Shown: piece after piece, positions 1,510 through 24,068 of the stretch
Layout of the letters: every line of letters starts with the position of its first letter
Numbering within the stretch: position 1 is the stretch's first letter
Assembly: GCA_018350325.1 (NCBI GenBank)
Contig: JAEVLN010000003.1
Coordinates: 21,985 to 85,984, forward strand
DNA from: Globodera rostochiensis
Lineage: Eukaryota; Nematoda; Chromadorea; Rhabditida; Heteroderidae
Direction of reading: 5' to 3'
Length of the DNA stretch: 64,000 nt
Made by a program: the position numbers and the translations under genes
The notes under the pieces: model-generated
What the model saw: only the letters and a program-made list of their open reading frames with translations
Database searches by the model: none
What the model was told of the DNA's origin: nothing

Positions 1510-2055
1510 ATGAATGGTCCCAGCGGAAATGACACTCGTCCCAGTGCAAATGACACCCGATCCGTTCTCATTGCCATCAATCCGCTGAAGCGTCGGGTCA
1601 GCTTCCGTGACATGCCGAACACCCAGTGAGGAAAAACAACGATCTTTTCGGAATTACCTATTCGGTTCTTTTTCAGCGAGTACGAGTATGCGTCTTCGAC
1701 CTCGACAGTGGCGCAAACGCCGACCAAACTGCTCCAAAAAAGGTCGGCCTATGTCTATGCGCCGACGGACAGTGGCATGCTATCCCATGTCCCTCCCCCC
1801 TCCCCTTAAAATGGTTAACAAATCGATTTGAGCGAGTTTTGTTCAAGCAACTCCATGCCTGGAGAATGTTTTTTGGATAAGGGGGAGGGCTCATCAGTAT
1901 GTCAGCCGAAGAACCAAACAATTACCGAACTTTTTGTCTTTTTAAAAATCATTTTTATTCCAAAGGTTGACGAAGTGGCCAAATACGGTGCGATTAACGA
2001 ACAAATGAACCATACCCATGTCATTCAGCACACTCCGTTCCATGGCCGTAAGTAA
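1510..2055 (+). CDS. Small conserved-looking protein of unknown function
   Basis: I do not recognise this 105-residue protein. The model joins 1510-1625, 1677-1788 and 1966-2055. It starts MNGPSGNDTRP, continues through EYEYASSTSTVAQTPTK and ends VDEVAKYGAINEQ...TPFHGRK. The start at 1510 follows a TTTTACAG acceptor at about 1480 that could accept a spliced leader; an in-frame upstream ATG exists at 1456. The donor after 1788 (CAT|GTCCCT) is weak. The stop lies inside a strong donor-like string (GGCC|GTAAGT at 2046-2051). Splicing there onto the acceptor at 2386 would read in frame into the LENG8 gene, but the joined peptide would be F/N/K-rich and unlike protein. It has no signal peptide or membrane segment. 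It lies between two genes on the same strand. Confidence 0.5.
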
Positions 2056-2374
2056 GTGTTTGAAAGGGTAATTTTTTATAAGCCCAAAATTTTCAACAAC
2101 AAAAAAACCATCCCGATTTTGTCACAATGCTCGGGCGGTTCTTTGTGCCATATGTCGAGCAAACCGAAAAAAACTTTACGTCGTTTTAATACATTTGTTC
2201 TCGAGTTATAGGCTAAAATGTTCATAATTTTATAGAAGAAAATCGTTCAACATAATTTTTGAATTTAGCGTTTGTTTTCTTTACATTTAATACTCTGGGC
2301 AAAATGTTTCAGCGATAATAAGATACAAAAATGAAACGCTGTGTGTCCTGTAAAAAATTGACGTAATTTCTTAC

Positions 2375-2387
2375 CTTTTCTCGCAGA
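2375..2387 (+). promoter_or_regulatory. Candidate trans-splice (spliced-leader) acceptor for LENG8
   Basis: The sequence CTTTTCTCGCAG ends at 2386, 56 bp before the ATG at 2443, with no in-frame coding-like sequence between. A pyrimidine tract plus CAG this close to an ATG is typical of nematode outrons. It would also be an ordinary 3' splice site if the upstream small gene were joined to LENG8. Confidence 0.4.
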
Positions 2388-2442
2388 GAAAAACTACTTT
2401 TTTTATTTTGCTTCATCATTTTTCACCAATAAATTATTCGTC

Positions 2443-5400
2443 ATGGAAAACGCGTGGCGAACGAGTAAAGAAAAGTGCGAAGGAGAGGATGAGACCAAAT
2501 CAGCATATGAACGTGATGAAAAAGAAATAGCCGCCAGGTCATCCGATCAGCAACAAGCGCAGGAAGCTGCAGCTGCACTGCCTGACGATTTGTCGGCCAT
2601 TCCCGTCCCGACAGAGCAGGAGATGCATCCGGCATGGCTGAAAGCGCAGGAAGCGCTCCGTTCCATCGGCGGCAAGACGGGCCAGCAGCAACAGGAGGAC
2701 ACCAGTGGTGACGCTGCTGTGCACCATCAACAGCAAAGCTATGAGGCGGCTGCAGCAGCGGTGTACGGATGGCCACCCAATGTAGGCCACCAGTTCAGCC
2801 CGTACTATCAGCAACAGCAGCCGCAGCATACAATGTATGATGAACAGTATCAGCGGCAGCCGCCGCCGCAGCAATACCACCACCCGCAACAACAACACCG
2901 ACAGCAGTACAGGCCGAGAATGATGACCGGAGTGTACAGTAACAGCACTAGCAGTAGACCAGTTCCGCTTGCTCAAGTCAGCGTTTCAGGTATGAGTTTT
3001 AATGGGGGGCTGAACGCGTTGGCCAGGAATGAGTTGGGTTTGGACTGCTCAAAAGCTCCTCCTCTGAAAAAACGTTAAATTTAAGCACAACTCTTTTTTT
3101 AGACCAATTTTTTGGCAAATTGCGTTCAAATTTCCCAGGTTTGCATCAGTCCGCTTCTCCTCGTTTCACAAAACCCATCCGATTTCCCAGCGCGCAACAA
3201 CACCACCAGCCGCCGGACAATGAAGTGTCCACAGAATCGCAAAAGTTTCTCGGAGAGGCGGCCGGCACTCGACAATATCCCGTGTCATTGAGGTTTCTAC
3301 TCATTTTGCCAACAATTTTTGGGGAAAATCCCTCCAAAAAAAACCTTTTTTTAGAATGCAAAAATGTTAAAATTTACATTTGTTGACGTACATAATTTCC
3401 GAATCACAAATTGCATTGAAAAAAACACATTTCTAGGAGTATATTGGGTCGAGAACCCGAATATGGCCTTCAATTTAATGGATTTTGCGTTTAAAACGGT
3501 TTTCGAACACGGAGACCGTTTCAATTTGTCCAAAATCATAAGGGGACTTTTTTTCGAAAACCAAAATTTTCATTGGTTTAAAAGCCATTTAAATTCTTTT
3601 TAACCAACTAGGAAGGCCAAACCCTGTTTTAAACGTAAAATTCGATAAATTAAAGGTTATATTCGCGTTTCTTACTTACGCAGAACCAAAATGTACCATC
3701 AATTTTTCATTTAAATTGAGAAAAACAAAAAAATGGATTTTTTAACAATTTCCTTCAAATTATATTTTTTGGCGCTGTAGTCCCACTCGATTTTTTGCAT
3801 AAATTTTAGCATTTTTAATAATAATAAATAATAATCCTTCCTAGGAGCTACATTGAGCGAGCTTATCGCGCCTGTGAAGGAGCGGAGGAGCGTGAAAAGT
3901 TGGAGAATTATTTACGGCAACGGGTGGAGCCACTGCTCAAATCGGGGGCCATTTACGCCGTGAATTGGGTGAGTATGTGGTTGGACTGCTGACCGAACTG
4001 CTCCAATCAGTGTGATCCAATGTTTCGCGTTCAGTTCGGGCAGCTAATTTTTGACAGAAAACATTTTTTTTTGTATGGTTAGCAAATATGCCAAAAAAAA
4101 AAAAAGAATTGCATTTTTCTTGGATTACAATCAGAGCGTGTGCTTGAGTCCCACTGGATGGTTTGCCACTAGAATGAGAGTCTACGGCTTCCCGAATTCT
4201 TGGCTAACCGGGGTCGAGACCTCCGAACATTTCTCGGTTTTTTAGATCGATCTGAAACCGACAAACTTAGCTGGCTGCCACGCTAAGCATGAATGTTGTC
4301 GGTTTTAAGTCGAACCAATCCAAAAATAATAATTGTGCAGTTAAACAAAAAATGTGCGAACTCGGCAAAACGGCCCTGGAGTGTAGACAAAATATCCAAA
4401 AATAGAAGAAAAAAAACCCCAAAGAAGGGCAATTTTCAGTGTTGTGGGAATAATTAATGTCGTCCATTTGCAGGCAAAGGAGCCGTTGCCGCATGAGCTG
4501 AACTTTGAGCTGAAGACGGGCTGGATTCCGGCCAACCTGGTCAAGCAGCAGTTCCAACAAAAACTAGCAGAAAAGGATGGCGGCGGTGGTGGTACTGGTA
4601 AAAATGCCGTTATGGCATCAAGCGGCGGTGTCGGTGCCGGTGGTCGGCGCAATTCGCCCGAGCGATGGGAGCGCGGCAAGAGTCCGTCCGCCTCCTCCCA
4701 GCAATGGACGCCGTCGTCAACATCGTCGCCCGCCAAAAGGTGTCCACCCTCCACTCCTCCCTCCCTCTACATCTACCCTATTTGCCGTCCCCGGAAATTG
4801 CCCAATTTGGTGCCGACCCCATAACTGGGGTAGCGCCGGTTTGGTTGGCCATGCCGAAAACGTTGGTAGAACCGGCTTAATGCCGGACGGTTAAAACAAA
4901 ACCGTCAACCATGGCCACTAATAATTGTTTCTTGAAAATGTTTTCGATCCGCGCCCCTCCCCCTTCTCTCAACTTTTGGTATGAAAGCTGAAATTCCATG
5001 TCCTAAGCATCCATAATTCGGAACTTATTCAACTTTAGGCTTTTGTGCTCATTGTCAGACTGGACAAACTTGACTTTAACTTTTGCGTTCTATTCATTTT
5101 TAAACTCCAAAAATTTTTGTCGTTTTTCCGCATCGAATTCCGTAAATTCAAAAATTTCTAGCAAAATAGCTCTCCCCTTGCCAACACTAAAAAAAGAATA
5201 AACTTTTTTGATCAAAAAAAATGGCCATTACTCAACGGTATGGACTCAGCGCGGCAATTTTTTAAGTATTGGTGGCCCAACAAATGGGCAGTCTTCTTCT
5301 TTCTTCTTCATTCCTTCACCCGGATCACCCCCACCCAAACGCAGCAAAGTCTCACCGTTTGTCGGCGACGAACGGTTTGGTGGCGCTGTTCAATACCAGC

Positions 5401-14864: not shown

Positions 14865-16330
14865 CTAAAATTTTGAAAATAAAAAAATTAACCGAAATTT
14901 TTCACAATTTTTTGAGTTTTAATTCCTGAAAAATAATAAAATCTAAATGTTTTTTTGAGTTTAAAATGGCCGCATTTTTAGCACAAAATTAAGGGCCTAA
15001 CTCGGCGATTTGCTGATGCATCTGATATTCGTTTGCATTTGTGCAGAAGAACATTTTAGCAAAATTGGAGTGAGCACAAATTTTCGCGCAATAATTGACG
15101 CGGATGAGGAGCCAAAGCAGCACAAAAGCAGGTCGGCGGCAGATCGAAATTTGAACATTTATCTAAAATCGGCTAATAATTTTATTTCCCAACCGGAATT
15201 CTCGTGGTTTCCCCGTCAACCCGGTCGAATTTTTCACGGAATCCCGCGGGAACGGGAAAATTTAAACACAAAAAACAATTAAAAAGGAAAAGTGAGACAG
15301 TATTACAAGGCTTTTTCTCTGCTGCTGGGCTTGACCATAATTTCAGACAAAAAGGTTAAAAGTGAAGAGGACAGACGAGAGAAGTAAAAGAAATAATGTG
15401 GAAAATGAAGAGAATTAGATAGAAAGAGAGAAAATCAATGAGAAGATGGGCAGGGGACATAAAACAGACGGGGTCAACCAATTTCATCCATTCCTTAACT
15501 GGCATAAAAAGGACCGGGGTCAACGCACCCGAACTGATCCATTCAAAATTTGAAGTTTTGAAGAAAGCTTTAATGAGTAGAAAAATGTTTTAACAACAAA
15601 ATCAAATAATGTTTGTACGATTAGTAAGCTTTAGATATGTTTCAACAGGGTTTCAAAGCATTTATTTGTAAGAAATTGGTGTCCGTACGTTTTGCCACCC
15701 CAGCAAAAATGTTTTACATTTTACCAACCCATCAAAAACTTAAATTTCGATCAATTTCGAACCCCGGACCCGAATTCGAAGGTTTTTTCGATTCCAAAAT
15801 TTTTTCGGAATCTTTTGACCTCAAAATCATTCAAAAACGTAACATTGCCAAAACTTAACGGAGGCAAAATGTAAGGTGGCAAAACGTAGTGTAACTTAAG
15901 AAGTTACATCTACCTATTTGCGAAACTGCCAAAAATTGAGATTTCAGTTTTTCGAACTCCAAAGTTAGGAGTTCAATAACTCCATTTTTGCTAAGTCAAT
16001 ATTGGTACTTAGAAAGTTTTAATGAGTAGAAGATATGTTGTACCAACAAGGTTAAAGCATTTACTTCCATGAAGCTGTATATTTGCGAAACTGCCAATAA
16101 GTATCAATATTGTTTTTTTTTAATTTTGAGAAGAGAAGAACTTCGAACTTTTGTAATGGATGAGTTTTGGGTTTGGGTGTGGTGAGTGTGACCCAAAACA
16201 GACAAAATCTCATGCAAAATAATTTCACATGCAATATTAGGGGGGAGGGGGGTGTCATTTTTGCTTATTGGGGATTTTGTCTTACACTAAAATTAGCTTT
16301 AGGCAATAAAGCTGAAATTGACCTAACAAG
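14865..16330. other. Intergenic region between NFU1 and the EEL-1 homologue
   Basis: These two genes are transcribed away from each other, so both promoters and the missing first exon of NFU1 should lie here. A minus-strand reading at 15063-15000 (MFFCTNANEYQMHQQIA) is a possible first exon, but its donor phase does not match the 14864 exon. A GA-rich stretch runs about 15350-15450. No other convincing gene is seen. Confidence 0.5.
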
Positions 16331-19300
16331 ATGAAGATTATCATCGAGAAATTAAAGCCTTTTAGCGCAGAAATTGTAAGTTTGTATCTTTTCGGTTTAC
16401 ATTAACGTGTTTTTTAATTTTCAAATAGACTGACGAGTGCCAAAGGGTCATCAGCAACATGAAGAACACTGGTGACACCACAAAATTTGTTTCTGGCCTT
16501 GACATGATGACAGAATGGTGCAGCACCTTTGGAAAGGTAAACAAACAAACATTTTTAACATGTTTATCGTTTGTTATAGACAGAAATGGGGCGCTGGGCC
16601 GACGTTTTGAATGACGGTGACGCGATTTTGGACGCAGCACTCGAGGAGGACCAGAATGGCACTTTTGCCATCGACAGGGAGGACACGCTCGAGTCGTCGG
16701 TGCTGTCCGTGCTCCGCTTCACGTCCCTCCTCTTCGAGAATACTTTCAGCCGGTCCATTTACGCGTCTATGGAGGTACTTTTAGGCCTGGACCGCATCTT
16801 CTTGATTCCGAAAATCTTTTTTAAAATTTCAACTCAAGTTCGGACTCACCCCTCCCCCTTTACAGCGACTGATCAAACTGCTTGACTGCAGGAAAATATG
16901 GGTGCTTGTGCAAGTGTTGCGTGTGCTGATGATTATCAGCAAGTCGTCGCGGTTCATCTCGCAGCACCTGACGCAAGAAATGCGCACCAAGCTGTACACA
17001 AAGCTGATGGCAATACTTGAGGTACTCTTTTTTTTGTTTGTTAGGGATTCAAAATTGAAAATTCAATTTTGTAAATACAAAAACGAAAGCTGCTTCGATT
17101 GGCAATGAGAATTTTTTTTTTGTTTAAGGCATGGAGTGGTCGATTGAGGACGATGCCGGTCAATGAGTTCTGTGCAGAGGGTTATACCGTTTCCCCCAGC
17201 ACACTGAACATTCAAATCCGCTCTGATGTGCCGGGATACACAGTCAATTTGGACAAGGTGAACATCGAGCAGTTACATTCATCTCCGTTGATTTTCAACG
17301 AAAAAAAAAATCGAAAACCATGAAGTCTGGCAATTAGTTTTTTTATTGTAATGGAGTTGGGCGGTTTTACAATTTGTCTTTCATTTTAGTCCATCGTCAA
17401 GTCCATCGGTGAAATGAGGGCCTCCTTTGCGTCAATCACTTTGGACGATGCAGAGATGGCACTGGCGAGCTTCAAATTGCGCTTTGCGTACGCCTCAAAG
17501 AATTTGAGCGAGCGCTTCTACTTGGTGATGACCCGCCTGATTGTCACGTCAGTGTTCTGTAAGGGTTTTGAAATGAAATGATTTGAATTTGAATTTGATT
17601 TTGGCTCCTTAAGTAATTTTGTTTTAGTAAATTTAACTAAAAACTTTAGTTTATTCGCGTTGTCTGATCACCGAAGAATGGCGTCTGAACAGCTTGGCGA
17701 ATGACGGATTCATTGAGCACTGCTGTGCGATATTGCGCAGTGAGTGGCCCTCAAAGTGTCACACGCTTGCAGATGCACTCAAAACGGAGGCGCTCAAAAC
17801 TCTGGCCAGTGTCGTCTTTTTGGAGAAAGACAAAAAGTATGCGCATCTTTACTCTTTTTGTGATGATGATTTTAATTTTTAGAATCCAAATGATTGTTGA
17901 CCATCTCGAGCTGCGCACTTACCACGGCTTTCTGCCGTCTCAGATCAGAAGCTGCATTGAAAGTTTGAAGGCGGGAAAGGTGGACGTCGGTAGCAACAGC
18001 GATTGTTCAATTGCATTTGTGACGTCGTTGTTTTCGTTGGTCTACCACATTGCCGGATTCGAATATGGTATGTATAATGGTGCAACAAACACAGTGTATA
18101 ACATTGAAAATTTGTCATTGTTTTAGGTGGGGATGCACTCAACCGATCATCAATGACAGCTGTACTGCTAGATGTGGTGAAGAACTACACACTTTCTGAA
18201 CAAAACATCAGTTTCGTCACACGTTCAATGCGAATCATCGACAATCTGACCGGCATGGACATCACAGAGTTCAATGCCAGAGGTGGCACTGACATTGTCA
18301 TCAAGCGGCTTATAGTAAGCCTGATTTTGCCATTAAGATGATTTAATTTGAACTTTAATTGGATGGGCTTTTCAGCATGAGGTCGACAAATGCAATCAGG
18401 CAGCAACACCGTTGCTGTGCAACCAGCAGCGGTCCGCTCTGATGAAGTCGTTGCTGAACTTTTTGAAGCGCGCTGTGCTCGACGTGCATTTGGTGGCACA
18501 AATGCGACGGATCATGGAGTCGGAGTTGCCCATGTCGCTGATCCACATCATTGAAAACCCGCACTTTTACGGCCCATCATTGTTGCACTGTGCCGTCACG
18601 CTGACAACAAATTTTATATTCCAGGAGGTGTAACAGTTTGTTGTTAGGAGTTGATTTACTTAACACACACCTTGTTTGTGTGATCACTTCTTTTCAATTT
18701 AAGCCTGCGCAACTGACGACACTTCAGAACACAGGCCTCACCAGCGCAATAATGGGATTGATATTCAATGAAAAAGTTTGTTTGTTTGTTTTTTTGGGTT
18801 TTATTAAAGATTGTTGTGGTTGGTGCCCTTTTCAGTTTCCAATCTCTCGCGACCTGGTCTGTGCATTGCCGAATGTGTGCTCAGCACTTTGCTTGAACGA
18901 GCGGGGGCTGAACGAGCTGAAGACATTCCAAGGGAAGAAGCCGCTGGAAAAGATGTTCCGGATCATCTTTTCAAACAAATTCCTCCAGTCCATGAGGAAG
19001 CGGAAGACCGAAATTGGTGAGTGAGAGCAACATTGGGATGGTATTGTTTTTGTTCAATTGCAGTTGAAACGGCCCACATGCTCGGCACGTCCTTTGACGA
19101 ACTGATCCGGCACCATCCATCGCTCCGCAAAGAACTCATGAGCACGTTGGCAGCGGTATGTAACATGCAACTAATGAATCTTGGAGAACATTGATTGTTT
19201 TTTATCCAACAGATAATTGACGATTGGCTGTCATTTGAGCAAAATTGCGAAAAGGAGGGGAAGCAATGTGCCATCGCGTGGGGCGTTGGAAAGGCTGTCG

Positions 19301-22300
19301 TTGAGGACGAATCCGTGCCGCTGCTACCGCTGGGCGATTATTTGGCAATGCTTGGCAGTAAGTACAATAGTTATTGTATTTGGGTTGTCTGGGGTGGTCG
19401 AAGTAACAATGTGCCAACTTCCTTCCATGTAAACGGCATTTCAAAATTTTAATTTTTTTTTACAATGTTCCGATCGCTTAGCTTAACAAACCAATGATTT
19501 GTTGTGTTTTTAAGTTGTGCTTGAGACGATGTTGACCAATCGCGGTGTGCAGGACAATGTGCAGGCGGCCAATGAATTTAGCATTTCGCTTCGTCTGGTC
19601 AAACTGATCACCCAGGCAAAACAACCGGTTTGTTTTTTTCAATTTATTTTATATAAAATCATTCTTTTTTGTTCAGAGTCCGCTGATGCTGCAGTCAAAC
19701 TACCTTCACATGCTGGCCAACATACTGCGTTATGTAAGACAGCTTTTGCAATTTTGTAACGTTTTTATCCCCCCCCCCCCATCATTTTGAAGACGCACAG
19801 ACACGATGTGGATAAGGCGTTTCTGCACTTGGTGAAGCAGAACAGTGTCGAGCTCAAGGCGTACAATCAATGCGAAGCGAGTGGCGATGGCAGTTGTCAG
19901 AAGAAATTGTGCCAATTGACCCGCCTTTGTGCACTGCTGACTACGCTCAACAGTCTGATGGTTTGTGTGTGGCTTTGTTTAACAAAATTTAAAAAAAATT
20001 TTTTTTTTCGTTTAGAAGTCGTCGCTACACTCACAAAGCACATATGAGTTAGTTTTAAAATTTTATTCATTTCCGTTTTGTGTTTATTTATTTCATTTCA
20101 GAATGCGTCCGTATATGCTTCACTTTTTTGCAACCGACTCGGACGCGCGCTCATTCATTTTTGCACTTTTTGATGCGTACAAAGTGAGTGACCGATCGAT
20201 TATTTTATTTATTTGTTTTTTATACGTCTCTGATTTTAGGTGATCAGTTGCAATTCCGCGGAACAACAGCAGCAGCAGGCAACAACATCACAAATTATTG
20301 AAGACACAGCCAAAGTGAGCGAACTGTTGATTGACGATGAATCGGGCAGCCAGCAGCAAGGAGTGTTGCTGATGGAGGTGGACAACAGCGGCACCGTGGC
20401 ATCGTCCACCAACACCGTGGCGCACCAACAACATCAACAACACCAAAGGCGTAATGTTGTCAATGTTGCAAGGAGCAATAGCGGCACCGCGGCTACCATG
20501 GCATTAACAACAGCACCAACACCAACAACATTGTTGGCCAACCCAGCTGCCACTTCATCGACGACGACGGATGGTCGACTTGTGGAACGGTCTGCGCAAT
20601 CCATCGCCATCCGGTCACTGAAGCAAATTGCTGAGCTGATCACATACATTGGCAAGGCGTTTTGCACCATTTCGTTGCCGCGCATTCGACAACGCGGGCA
20701 GGCCGCACAACCGACAATGGATCAGGCCACGATGCGACAACATGCACAGAAAATCACCAAGCTAGTGTTTGGTGGTCTAAAGCGCTTGTTGGAGACTGAC
20801 GACACGACGTTGAAGATGGTGAACAAAATCAACATGAGGTAAATGAGCAGGGAATGGAATTGCTTATTTGTGTTACCATAATTTAAGTGCTTCACATATC
20901 CACCATTCGTTGTCAACCTTGAAGAAGTTGTTGATCGACGACACGCACAATCTGCAGTTGCTTTTGCCAAACTTTTACAAATCGGGATGCCACAGTGCCT
21001 TCTTTGCCATGGGCGACAAGTATCTCAGACCAAACATTGAGAAAGGTATACACATTTTTTAATTGAGAAAATTCAATATTTTTCTTTAGTTGAGTACAAT
21101 ATGCCCATCCAACTTTGGCTTGGTATAACGCAACGTTTGATCGTCGTCCAGCTTGCGGACATGACGAGCAGAAACAAAAACAATGGCCAGCAACCCAAGC
21201 CGCAGCAAGTTGTTGTTGCGGGCTTCGAGTCGAACAACTACCTGGCAACTTGTCAAAAAGTATGGGGTTTTTGTCTTTCATGACGTTATAAATTGCATTT
21301 GAAAAAAAAATTGTTTGAGAAGATTGTTTTGATGGCAATATACTTCTGGCATTTTTATTTTGATTATTTCAGGATGCATTTGCGGCACTTGTCAAATTGT
21401 TCAAGTCTTTGGTTGAACTGTGCGATGTTTCGACAAAGTGTGGCAAAGAAGAAGGTGTTGTGTTTGTTTTGCTGGAACGCGTGCTGTGTTCCATGAAAGT
21501 GCTCGTCCATGGCATGATGGAGCTGTTAGAATTGACGGAAAACAAAGCTGGGCACGCTGCAGAGATACCAGTCAGTGAGATCGACCCGACCAAGGTGGGC
21601 ATGCGCATTTTCAGATTGAATACTCGAATAAAATTCGGTGCATTTTAGATTGAACAGCTTGTCGAGGTTGGTGGTGGTGGTGCAATTGATATTGAAAGTG
21701 GACTTAAATATACATTCTCTTATCCAAATTTAGATGGGCTTCTCGCAAAGTGACGCTGTGGACGCACTCATGCAATTTTCGAGCGTGCTTGAGGCAGCCG
21801 GTAAATGAATAAACAGAAAAAAAACTCAAATTTGGATAGTGGGGACTTTTGTGCTTCTACGTTTTGGGGGGGGGGGGTGGGGTGGGGGAGTTTTAAAGTT
21901 TAGTTCTTTCTATTTAACGGCTCGTTTTACTATATTTTGAAAAAGCCTCCCTTCACGAGTTTAAGCGCTTAAAATTTGATTAATTCTGAATATTTGTGCA
22001 CTTCTTAACAACATTATAGAGCACATCGTGTCGATGATGGAGCGCTCAGCAGCGGCCACTTCTCGAACAATTACATCTGCGGCGCAGCCGACTGTCACTG
22101 TTTCGTCAACGGCGCCCGCTACAACTGTGGCCGCTGCGACCACTGTTGCGACAGATGTTGTTGCTGCTGCGACCGCATCCGTCATTTCAGCAGAGAATAG
22201 TGCTGCTGATCAACAACAACAAGACGAGGACAGTGCTGCTGCTGCTGCTGCTGCTGCTGACGCTGACACCGCCACGCCGATGGAGGAGGGACAGTCACAA

Positions 22301-22901
22301 TTTCGTTCGAGTACACCAGAGGCAGACGCGTCAACATCGACCACCGCTGAAGCGGGAGAAGAAAACCAAGCAGAGGATCAGCAAGATTTTGGAAAAGAGA
22401 CAGCGCAGGAAGATGAAATGTCGTTTGCTGACTTGAAGCCGTTGACGCGAGAGGAGTTTCAGGCAAGTTTGTTTCGGATTGGCCTAGCCTATAAAATTCA
22501 GATTGAATAATCTGTGCTTTTAACTGCAGGAAATGGTCGACTTGCTCTGCAGGGAGGTGGTCGGCACGTGTCTTCGTCTTGTGCGGTGCAGTCGACTGGT
22601 GGTGATCGGCCTGTCCGAGTTGGTCTCAGTGTTCGCCCGCGACGCATTGGCAAGCTCATGGGTTGATGTGCAGTTCATTGGCAGCATTATCACTGAACTC
22701 AATCGACACTTGGACGAGCTGACGACAACAAATTGTGACGAAGGTGAACCGATGATGGCGTCGTCGGATGAGGACAAAGATGCTGATGTTGGCACGGATG
22801 ATGAAGAATTGACTGAACAACTTGCATCCCTTTTGCAATTGTTTTGCCAGCTCTGGCAACATTTCCCCAACCAAAAAATCTACAAACGCCTCAACGAATG
22901 A
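16331..22901 (+). CDS. eel-1: EEL-1/HUWE1 homologue ending after the UBA region (no HECT domain)
   Basis: Homologue of the N-terminal third of the HECT ubiquitin ligase HUWE1 (EEL-1 in C. elegans). Twenty-seven exons, from 16331-16375, 16429-16536, 16580-16774 and 16866-17021 through to 22020-22462 and 22530-22901, sum to 4605 bp (1534 residues plus stop) with all phases agreeing. It starts MKIIIEKLKPFSAEI. The armadillo-like DUF908/DUF913 region is clear: SLLFENTFSRSIYASME, YHGFLPSQIRSCIESL, ISFVTRSMRIIDNLTGMDI, ALLKS-like ALMKSLLNFLKRAVLD and LPNVCSALCLNERGL. A UBA domain lies at about residues 1236-1275 (IEQLVEMGFSQSDAVDALMQ). The gene then ends KIYKRLNE, stop at 22899-22901, with AATAAA at 22913. 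No WWE, BH3-like or HECT sequence follows in the window. Exon 24 (21649-21666) is an 18-bp microexon, and the last intron has a canonical GC donor (CAG|GCAAGT at 22463). Confidence 0.93.
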
Positions 22902-22912
22902 TGTCTGATCGA

Positions 22913-22918
22913 AATAAA
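22913..22918 (+). terminator. Poly(A) signal of the EEL-1 homologue
   Basis: AATAAA lies 12 bp after the stop codon, followed by a T-rich stretch. It supports a true transcript end here rather than an unrecognised downstream exon. Confidence 0.6.
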
Positions 22919-23309
22919 AGTCATGACCAACGCCTGGAAACGATAATTATTTTTTATGTTATGTTTGGTGTCTTTTTATTCTCATTTATTGTCATTGATG
23001 ATTGATTTCGAATAACGCTTTTGATAAAAAATTATGTGACCGCACAACAGAAGCATCAGGGGAATGTAAAAATGGGGGCCCGGGGGGCGCAATGATTTTT
23101 GCGAAGACCCATCTAAAATTTTGTTTGTCAATTTCCTTGAAAAAATGTTGCCAGTTTCAATATCCATTTTTTCGGATTGGGAACTTTATTGGCAAAATTT
23201 GTAATTTCAACAGCAGTGAGCACATCAAATTTATACGTACGAACAAAAACAAATGAATTTCAAGTCGCTTTCGTCCAATTGCACATTTGTGGCCCTAAAG
23301 AGGGCCGTT

Positions 23310-23534: not shown

Positions 23535-24068
23535 TCAAAGCCTTTTGTTAAACACCCGCTTGGGCAGAACTTCTGCCTGGATGTGCGGCAACACACCGCC
23601 CTGAGAAATGATCACACCAGAGAAAAGCTGAAAATGAACAAAAACAATTTCTAACAGTCCATCGTCTCAAAGTCCACCGACCGTGCTCAACTCCTCATCG
23701 TTACGGATTGCCAACTGCAAATGGCGGGGGTTGACCCGCTTCTTGTTGTTGTCCTGTGCGGTCTTGCCGGCCAACTCGACCACTTCGGCCACGAGGTACT
23801 CCAGCACCGCAGCCAGATAGACGGGCGCAATGGCTCCCACACGATCGGCGAATTTCCCTGAAATTTGGAAAAATTGAAGAATATCATCAACGGATTTGAT
23901 TTTTCTAAAATTGCTTTTTCAAGATTTTGCAATTTTTACATCGTGTGCTTTTGCCTTACCTTTACGCAGCAAACGATGAATACGCCCGACGGGGAATATA
24001 ACTTCGGCACGTGAAGAACGCGAGTGTCCGCCTTTCTTCGCTTTGACTCGCTTATTGCGTCCCGACAT
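23535..24068 (-). CDS. Histone H2A (intron-containing, divergent C-terminal tail)
   Basis: Core histone H2A, 125 residues, from exons 23960-24068, 23682-23857 and 23535-23627. It starts [20 protein letters not shown] and contains the H2A landmarks [42 protein letters not shown] and [15 protein letters not shown]. The acidic-patch residues NDEE are intact. It differs from replication-dependent H2A by having two introns and an AATAAA signal, and by the tail [12 protein letters not shown] and substitutions such as [17 protein letters not shown]. It is not H2A.Z (canonical RNDEEL and VLPHIQ) and has no SQ motif of H2A.X. The second intron has an unusual GTCGGT donor. Confidence 0.93.

What the first reader, a model, noticed from the sequence alone, without database searches (positions are those of the whole stretch)
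16331..22920. EEL-1/HUWE1 homologue cut off after the UBA region, with stop codon and poly(A) signal
The 27-exon model is in perfect phase and runs colinearly with the N-terminal third of HUWE1, but ends in TGA followed 12 bp later by AATAAA, and the next gene (H2A) is in the opposite strand 600 bp on. HUWE1/EEL-1 is normally over 4000 residues with WWE and C-terminal HECT domains. Loss of HECT would leave a UBA-armadillo protein able to bind ubiquitin and substrates but not ligate. Alternatives: the ligase half is a separate gene elsewhere (gene fission), or this is a truncated paralogue.
Basis: partly seen in the sequence, partly recalled or inferred. Interest (0 to 1): 0.78.

Follow-up and report, generated by a model that had tools for sequence, protein, structure and literature searches.

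The report
Giant ubiquitin ligase split in two
In potato cyst nematodes and related root parasites, a giant protein-tagging enzyme that other animals and yeast make as one chain appears to be encoded by two separate genes, cut cleanly between two helices, which probably dock to rebuild the enzyme.

Summary
Window 16331-22901 (+) encodes a 27-exon, 1534-aa protein matching the first third of HUWE1/EEL-1 (DUF908, DUF913, UBA). It ends in TGA with AATAAA 11 bp later. It is not a ligase that lost its HECT domain. The rest of HUWE1 (WWE to HECT) is a separate gene on another contig of the same genome, C9:155285-164368. The searches found one N-half and one intact C-half (plus a decayed fragment on C19). 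Against the unsplit Ditylenchus destructor protein, all six N-halves tested stop matching at residue 1511-1514, and a global alignment places the C-half's first Met at 1515. N-halves with the same end occur in G. pallida, three Meloidogyne species and one unnamed record. C-halves with the same start occur in Heterodera trifolii, G. rostochiensis and one unnamed record. Ditylenchus, Caenorhabditis, Angiostrongylus, human and yeast proteins run through. The best explanation is one ancient gene fission in the cyst/root-knot lineage. I infer that the two proteins dock to rebuild the closed solenoid HUWE1 needs for activity; this was not tested. The paper searches found no report of it. A comparable natural case is yeast split-Doa10.

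The parts
16298..16302 (+). TTTAG acceptor-like site 28 nt upstream of the ATG; possible spliced-leader trans-splice site of the N-half gene
   Evidence: sequence reading only; SL1-like RNA genes exist in the genome; no RNA evidence
16331..22901 (+). N-half HUWE1/EEL-1 gene, 27 exons, 1534 aa, TGA stop
   Evidence: model; HUWE1 1-687 match; G. pallida orthologue covering 100% at 94%
16580..16774 (+). exon 3, start of DUF908
   Evidence: PF06012 E 3.2e-5 on this exon alone, below its curated cut-off; over the cut-off in the G. pallida protein
18376..19155 (+). exons 10-13, DUF913
   Evidence: PF06025 on exon pieces
21577..22045 (+). UBA domain, residues 1230-1272, from the end of exon 23 to the start of exon 26
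   Evidence: aligned to human HUWE1 1316-1358, weak by itself; PF00627 over the cut-off in P0001, P0005 and P0006
22530..22901 (+). exon 27; helical tail that ends at the fission point (..FPNQKIYKRLNE stop)
   Evidence: six of six N-halves tested stop matching D. destructor at 1511-1514; predicted helices 2-17, 22-37, 42-72, 89-109, 114-122, mean pLDDT 74.5
22913..22918 (+). AATAAA poly(A) signal
   Evidence: sequence
23535..24068 (-). histone H2A-like gene, convergent neighbour; not part of the split ligase
   Evidence: translation, read by eye

Best explanation
An ancient gene fission split the HUWE1/EEL-1 gene between two helices of its armadillo-like solenoid, after the UBA and just before the WWE module. 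The window holds the N-half (DUF908/DUF913/UBA). The C-half (WWE, ubiquitin-binding region, HECT) is a separate gene on contig C9. Shown: both genes are present in this genome, they are complementary to within a few residues, and the same end or start points recur in other cyst and root-knot nematodes, while Ditylenchus and more distant species keep one chain. Inferred: the two messages are translated separately, and the two proteins dock non-covalently at the former helix-helix contact and at the ring-closing contact, rebuilding a HUWE1-like solenoid in which the N-half places substrate and ubiquitin near the HECT domain. If so, ligase activity depends on assembly of two independently made subunits.
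For: N-half: model; human HUWE1 1-687. C-half: aligned stretches from human 1575 to 4374, the last residue; best PDB matches are HUWE1 chains. WWE matches only on C9 (1 of 1 match); DUF913 only in the window (3 of 3 matches); the N-half's last exon only itself (1 of 1). Of 19 HECT matches, 5 lie in the C9 gene, which ends ..HTCFNQLDLPEY..ECSEGFAFA; that the C in HTC is the catalytic cysteine is recalled from the HECT motif. In one search, 7 of 10 listed proteins end at the fission point (P0001-P0007) and 3 of 10 run through (P0008-P0010; sequences). In one search, 3 of 9 (P0012, P0013, P0015) hold the start at the junction. Laid end to end, the window halves align across the D. destructor join with a 2-residue gap: the N-half reaches 1514 and the C-half Met falls on 1515; P0015's Met falls on 1516. 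N-half matching ends at 1511-1514 in 6 of 6. Split rows form one side of a 100/100 branch (10 rows) and of a 98/99 branch (7 rows). The closed-state interface of HUWE1 is needed for activity (review PMC13196369, passages). The fragments of naturally split Doa10 assemble into an active ligase (PMC3464245, abstract and section 7).
Against: No RNA or protein evidence from this organism was examined, and docking of the halves is untested. By local alignment C-half matching begins only at D. destructor 1519-1539 (5 of 5), so 4 to 27 residues near the cut are not confidently aligned. No named Meloidogyne C-half was found (only the candidates sharing most words were scored). The fold search of the N-half tail gave no match at E <= 0.001, so the repeat fold at the cut rests on homology. 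The clustering of split rows is reached by 8 of 500 shuffles in the N-half tree but by 78 of 500 in the 7-row C-half tree, and P0006, P0015, P0010 and D. destructor are flagged as long branches in one or other tree. My C-half model skips some exons (compare).
Confidence: 0.8

Rival explanations
1. The two pre-mRNAs are joined by trans-splicing into one full-length message, as I recall for C. elegans eri-6/7, so the protein is still one chain.
For: The halves are complementary almost to the residue; the genome carries SL1-like RNA genes and so probably trans-splices.
Against: The N-half ends in its own stop with a nearby poly(A) signal. P0006, a 1476-aa N-half, sits on a contig of only 4565 bases, so it must be intron-free and cDNA-like, and it ends at the homologous point (the record does not show its stop codon). 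P0015 likewise begins at the C-half start; its longest contig is 4709 bases. Reading the source label lgn as an RNA-containing collection is inference.
Confidence: 0.06
2. The halves no longer work together: the C-half is a stand-alone ligase and the N-half is a separate ubiquitin/substrate-binding protein or a regulator of the C-half.
For: They are separate loci on separate contigs; HUWE1 HECT domains have been crystallised alone.
Against: The N-half stays full length and 44.0% identical to D. destructor over 1406 aligned residues, more than the first 580 residues of the C-half (37.8% over 497). The review states that the interface of the closed state is needed for activity.
Confidence: 0.12
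3. Truncated paralogue or pseudogene, with a normal full-length HUWE1 elsewhere in the genome.
For: A decayed partial copy of the C-half exists on C19, so copies of this gene have arisen.
Against: No second DUF913, WWE or N-half tail was found in the genome; 1534 codons are open; proteins of similar length with the same end occur in Meloidogyne.
Confidence: 0.01
4. Assembly misjoin at about 22.9 kb that separated one gene into two places.
For: Both loci lie within 165 kb of a contig start.
Against: Proteins from other species (G. pallida on a 5.9 Mb contig, M. hapla on a 3.0 Mb contig) end at the same point, and H. trifolii (1.4 Mb contig) starts at the same point; the tails after the last conserved residue differ between genera, as separate gene ends would.
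Confidence: 0.01

Closest known systems
HUWE1 / EEL-1 / Tom1 giant HECT ligase
   Same: DUF908, DUF913, UBA, WWE, ubiquitin-binding region and HECT, in the same order across the two genes
   Different: two genes on two contigs instead of one chain (2490 to 4374 residues in the solved examples); cut between UBA and WWE
Split-Doa10 of Kluyveromyces (PMC3464245, abstract and section 7)
   Same: a single-chain ubiquitin ligase split by fission of a nuclear gene; the event is shared by a clade
   Different: a membrane RING-CH ligase; its halves lie in one locus 508 bp apart with an internal promoter, and assembly was shown by experiment; here a giant HECT ligase with halves on different contigs and assembly only inferred
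Two-gene sodium channel of aphids (PMC4954994, abstract and introduction)
   Same: an animal protein normally one chain is encoded by two genes
   Different: an ion channel; no link to ubiquitin ligases

Membership tests
HUWE1/EEL-1 | DUF908 and DUF913 N-terminal region | tested here: met
   (on exons, where DUF908 is below its cut-off, and on the 94% identical G. pallida protein, where both pass)
HUWE1/EEL-1 | UBA | tested here: met
   N-half residues 1230-1272 align to human 1316-1358, weak alone; PF00627 over cut-off in P0001, P0005, P0006
HUWE1/EEL-1 | WWE | tested here: met
   C-half only, C9:155849-156001, 34.3 bits against cut-off 21.1
HUWE1/EEL-1 | ubiquitin-binding region (UBM) | tested here: met
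   tested on the H. trifolii C-half P0013; listed as precomputed for P0012; not scanned on my own C-half model
HUWE1/EEL-1 | HECT domain | tested here: met
   C-half only; HECT matches; best PDB matches are HUWE1 chains to their last residue
HUWE1/EEL-1 | all domains in one polypeptide | tested here: not met
   separate stop and start, separate contigs
HUWE1/EEL-1 | closed solenoid needed for activity | not testable with these tools
   no prediction of two-chain complexes offered; both halves exceed the 1200-residue limit
Split-Doa10-like split ligase | fission shared by a clade, unsplit outgroups | tested here: met
   sampling limited to the proteins found
Split-Doa10-like split ligase | two fragments bind and reconstitute activity | not testable with these tools
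   needs biochemistry

The most novel reading that the evidence does not exclude
The cyst/root-knot nematode lineage runs HUWE1 as an obligate two-subunit ring ligase whose closure is regulated by making, localising or degrading the halves separately, so the N-half acts as an exchangeable substrate-receptor subunit: a natural conversion of a single-chain giant HECT ligase into a modular, assembly-gated one.
Probability: 0.2. Interest if true: 0.8.

Novelty: new variant of a known kind. Interest (0 to 1): 0.62.

Why it matters
HUWE1 is a conserved ligase, single-chain in yeast and human, that works through a closed solenoid. A naturally split version kept across several genera would show which contact in the scaffold can be non-covalent, and would offer a two-piece system for testing whether opening of the scaffold regulates activity, which the review read here calls unknown. 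It would also be an unusual molecular difference between major crop parasites and their relatives. It corrects annotation too: a database entry names the G. pallida N-half alone huwe1.

Tried and rejected
Full-length copy elsewhere: none found in searches of the whole genome (one search used only the first 351 residues of the C-half). C19 second copy: it reads as fragments of the C-half with pieces missing and no continuous frame, so I take it for a decayed partial duplicate. Named Meloidogyne C-half: not found, left open. The N-half tail was modelled, but its fold search gave nothing significant. The two original HUWE1 cryo-EM papers are not held, so passages of reviews were used. A 2010 survey of animal HECT ligases counted one HUWE1 gene in C. 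elegans, sampled only C. elegans and Brugia among nematodes, and does not use the word fission (PMC2837046, passages). Paper searches bearing on this split. In the held library the only paper with both HUWE1 and Globodera concerns plant ligases (passages), and the only one with both HUWE1 and Meloidogyne is a Verbena transcriptome (listing only).
Full report
1. What is in the window. The gene at 16331-22901 (+) is real. Introns are GT-AG except one GC donor, and several donors are unusual. The protein matches human HUWE1 residues 1-687 in one stretch (E 1.9e-94), and its UBA lines up with human 1316-1358, though that piece alone scores only 4.8 bits. A G. pallida protein of 1510 aa covers the whole model at 94% and ends identically. 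TGA (22899-22901) is followed 11 bp later by AATAAA, and an H2A-like gene converges from 24068 to 23535.

2. Where the ligase went. The window lies at C23:21985-85984 of a 92.6-Mb, 80-contig assembly. Of 19 HECT matches there, 5 lie at C9:163165-164362, in a gene ending ..HTCFNQLDLPEY..ECSEGFAFA; the catalytic role of that cysteine is recalled. The only WWE match in the genome is at C9:155849 on the same strand. A model from ATG C9:155285 to the stop at 164368 gives 2014 aa. It is imperfect: tblastn with G. rostochiensis and H. trifolii proteins, and one HECT match, show stretches that it skips, for example C9:162455-162625 and 163320-163424. It aligns to human HUWE1 in pieces from 1575 to 4374. 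DUF913 matched only the window, and the N-half's last exon matched only itself. So one N-half and one intact C-half were found. C19:172586-173950 holds a decayed partial copy of the C-half. The organism is a Globodera, most likely G. rostochiensis: G. pallida is 94% on the N-half, and the G. rostochiensis C-half protein P0012 shares identical stretches with the C9 gene, its predicted first residues included. This naming is inference.

3. The cut is clean and shared. D. destructor has one protein (P0008) that aligns to human HUWE1 from 1 to 1888 in pieces. Against it, N-halves from the window, P0001, P0004, P0005, P0006 and P0007 stop matching at residue 1511-1514 (6 of 6). In a global alignment of the window halves laid end to end, the N-half reaches 1514, two extra residues (NE) follow, and the C-half Met falls on 1515; P0015's Met falls on 1516. 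Local alignment is less sharp: C-half matching begins at 1519, 1526, 1533, 1539 and 1539 (5 of 5). Tails after the last conserved residues and leaders before the first differ between genera (KRLNE, KRVSNDRTST, KLLHNGNTDTISH; MSST, MASPECST, MAI). That would be expected if the break fell in an ancestral intron and each half later fixed its own end; the intron idea is inference. Of the 10 proteins, 7 end at the cut (three G. pallida entries, M. hapla, M. enterolobii, M. incognita, one unnamed) and 3 run through (D. destructor, D. dipsaci, C. auriculariae). Of the 9, P0012 (with 21 further predicted residues in front), P0013 and P0015 hold the junction start; P0014 starts at a Met 7 residues later and P0011 later still; P0016 and P0018 (Angiostrongylus) are single chains with N-half and HECT domains; P0017 and P0019 are partial. 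In the N-half tree (10 rows; P0002, P0003 and P0007 left out as aberrant or partial models) split rows form one side of a 100/100 branch, with Ditylenchus next to them (8 of 500 label shuffles do as well). A 7-row C-half tree agrees at 98/99, but 78 of 500 shuffles do as well there. Both trees are rooted for drawing only, and several rows are flagged as long. The direction, fission and not fusion, follows because the human and yeast chains match both halves, and Angiostrongylus has one chain.

4. Separate messages. Two unnamed records suggest mature, separate transcripts: a 1476-aa N-half on a 4565-base contig, and a C-half beginning at the junction whose longest contig is 4709 bases. Genes with as many introns as the window's (26) fit such contigs only as cDNA; neither record shows its stop codon or untranslated ends. 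Acceptor-like sites precede both starts: TTTAG ending at 16302; ATTCAG and ATATAG 14 and 5 nt before C9:155285. The genome has 46 matches to the SL1 RNA family, all below the curated cut-off; the one that I read carries GGTTTAATTACCCAAGTTTGAG on the reverse strand. That this is the canonical leader is recalled, and no RNA read was examined.

5. How it most likely works. The predicted N-half tail is a row of helices, the last ending one residue before the stop (mean pLDDT 74.5), and the D. destructor chain has a proline at the join, so the cut probably lies between helices of the armadillo-like scaffold. The fold search of that tail found nothing significant. The review read in passages says that the HUWE1 scaffold closes into a solenoid, that the interface of the closed state is needed for activity, that ARLD1 contacts ubiquitin beside the HECT domain in Tom1 (L615), and that any regulatory role of opening is unknown (PMC13196369). 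The N-half matches the Tom1 stretch 507-682, chain numbering, that should hold that contact. The simplest working model is therefore non-covalent reassembly of the two halves. Yeast split-Doa10 shows that a fissioned ligase can reassemble (PMC3464245). The N-half's 44.0% identity to D. destructor over 1406 aligned residues argues that its surfaces are still under constraint.

6. Novelty. Each half belongs to the HUWE1 family, but the defining single chain is tested and not met, so this is a natural split variant. Searches of the held library found no report of it; most subscription papers are not in that library.

Noticed in passing
G000:C19:172586-173950 (L039): Decayed, internally deleted copy of the C-half, keeping an ATTCAG acceptor-like site upstream.
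   Followed up: partly
G000:C9:140870-141541 (L025:870-1541): Glycosyl hydrolase family 32-like stretch about 14 kb upstream of the C-half start (PF00251, 27.1 bits against cut-off 22.1).
   Followed up: no
G000:C12:4258591-4283892 and C23:4799973-4823364: Arrays of SL1-like RNA genes, mostly spaced about 1.2 kb on C12 and about 1.6 kb on C23; all below Rfam's cut-off.
   Followed up: partly
window 23535-24068 (-): A histone H2A-like gene converges on the N-half; histones are a HUWE1/Tom1 substrate class, the neighbourhood probably coincidence.
   Followed up: no
G000:C23:2231440-2234607 (L011): A HECT ligase gene on the window's own contig with a long run of tandem NQYNPR/VQSVQPPG-type repeats, open in more than one frame, between HECT pieces; perhaps an intronic minisatellite.
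   Followed up: no
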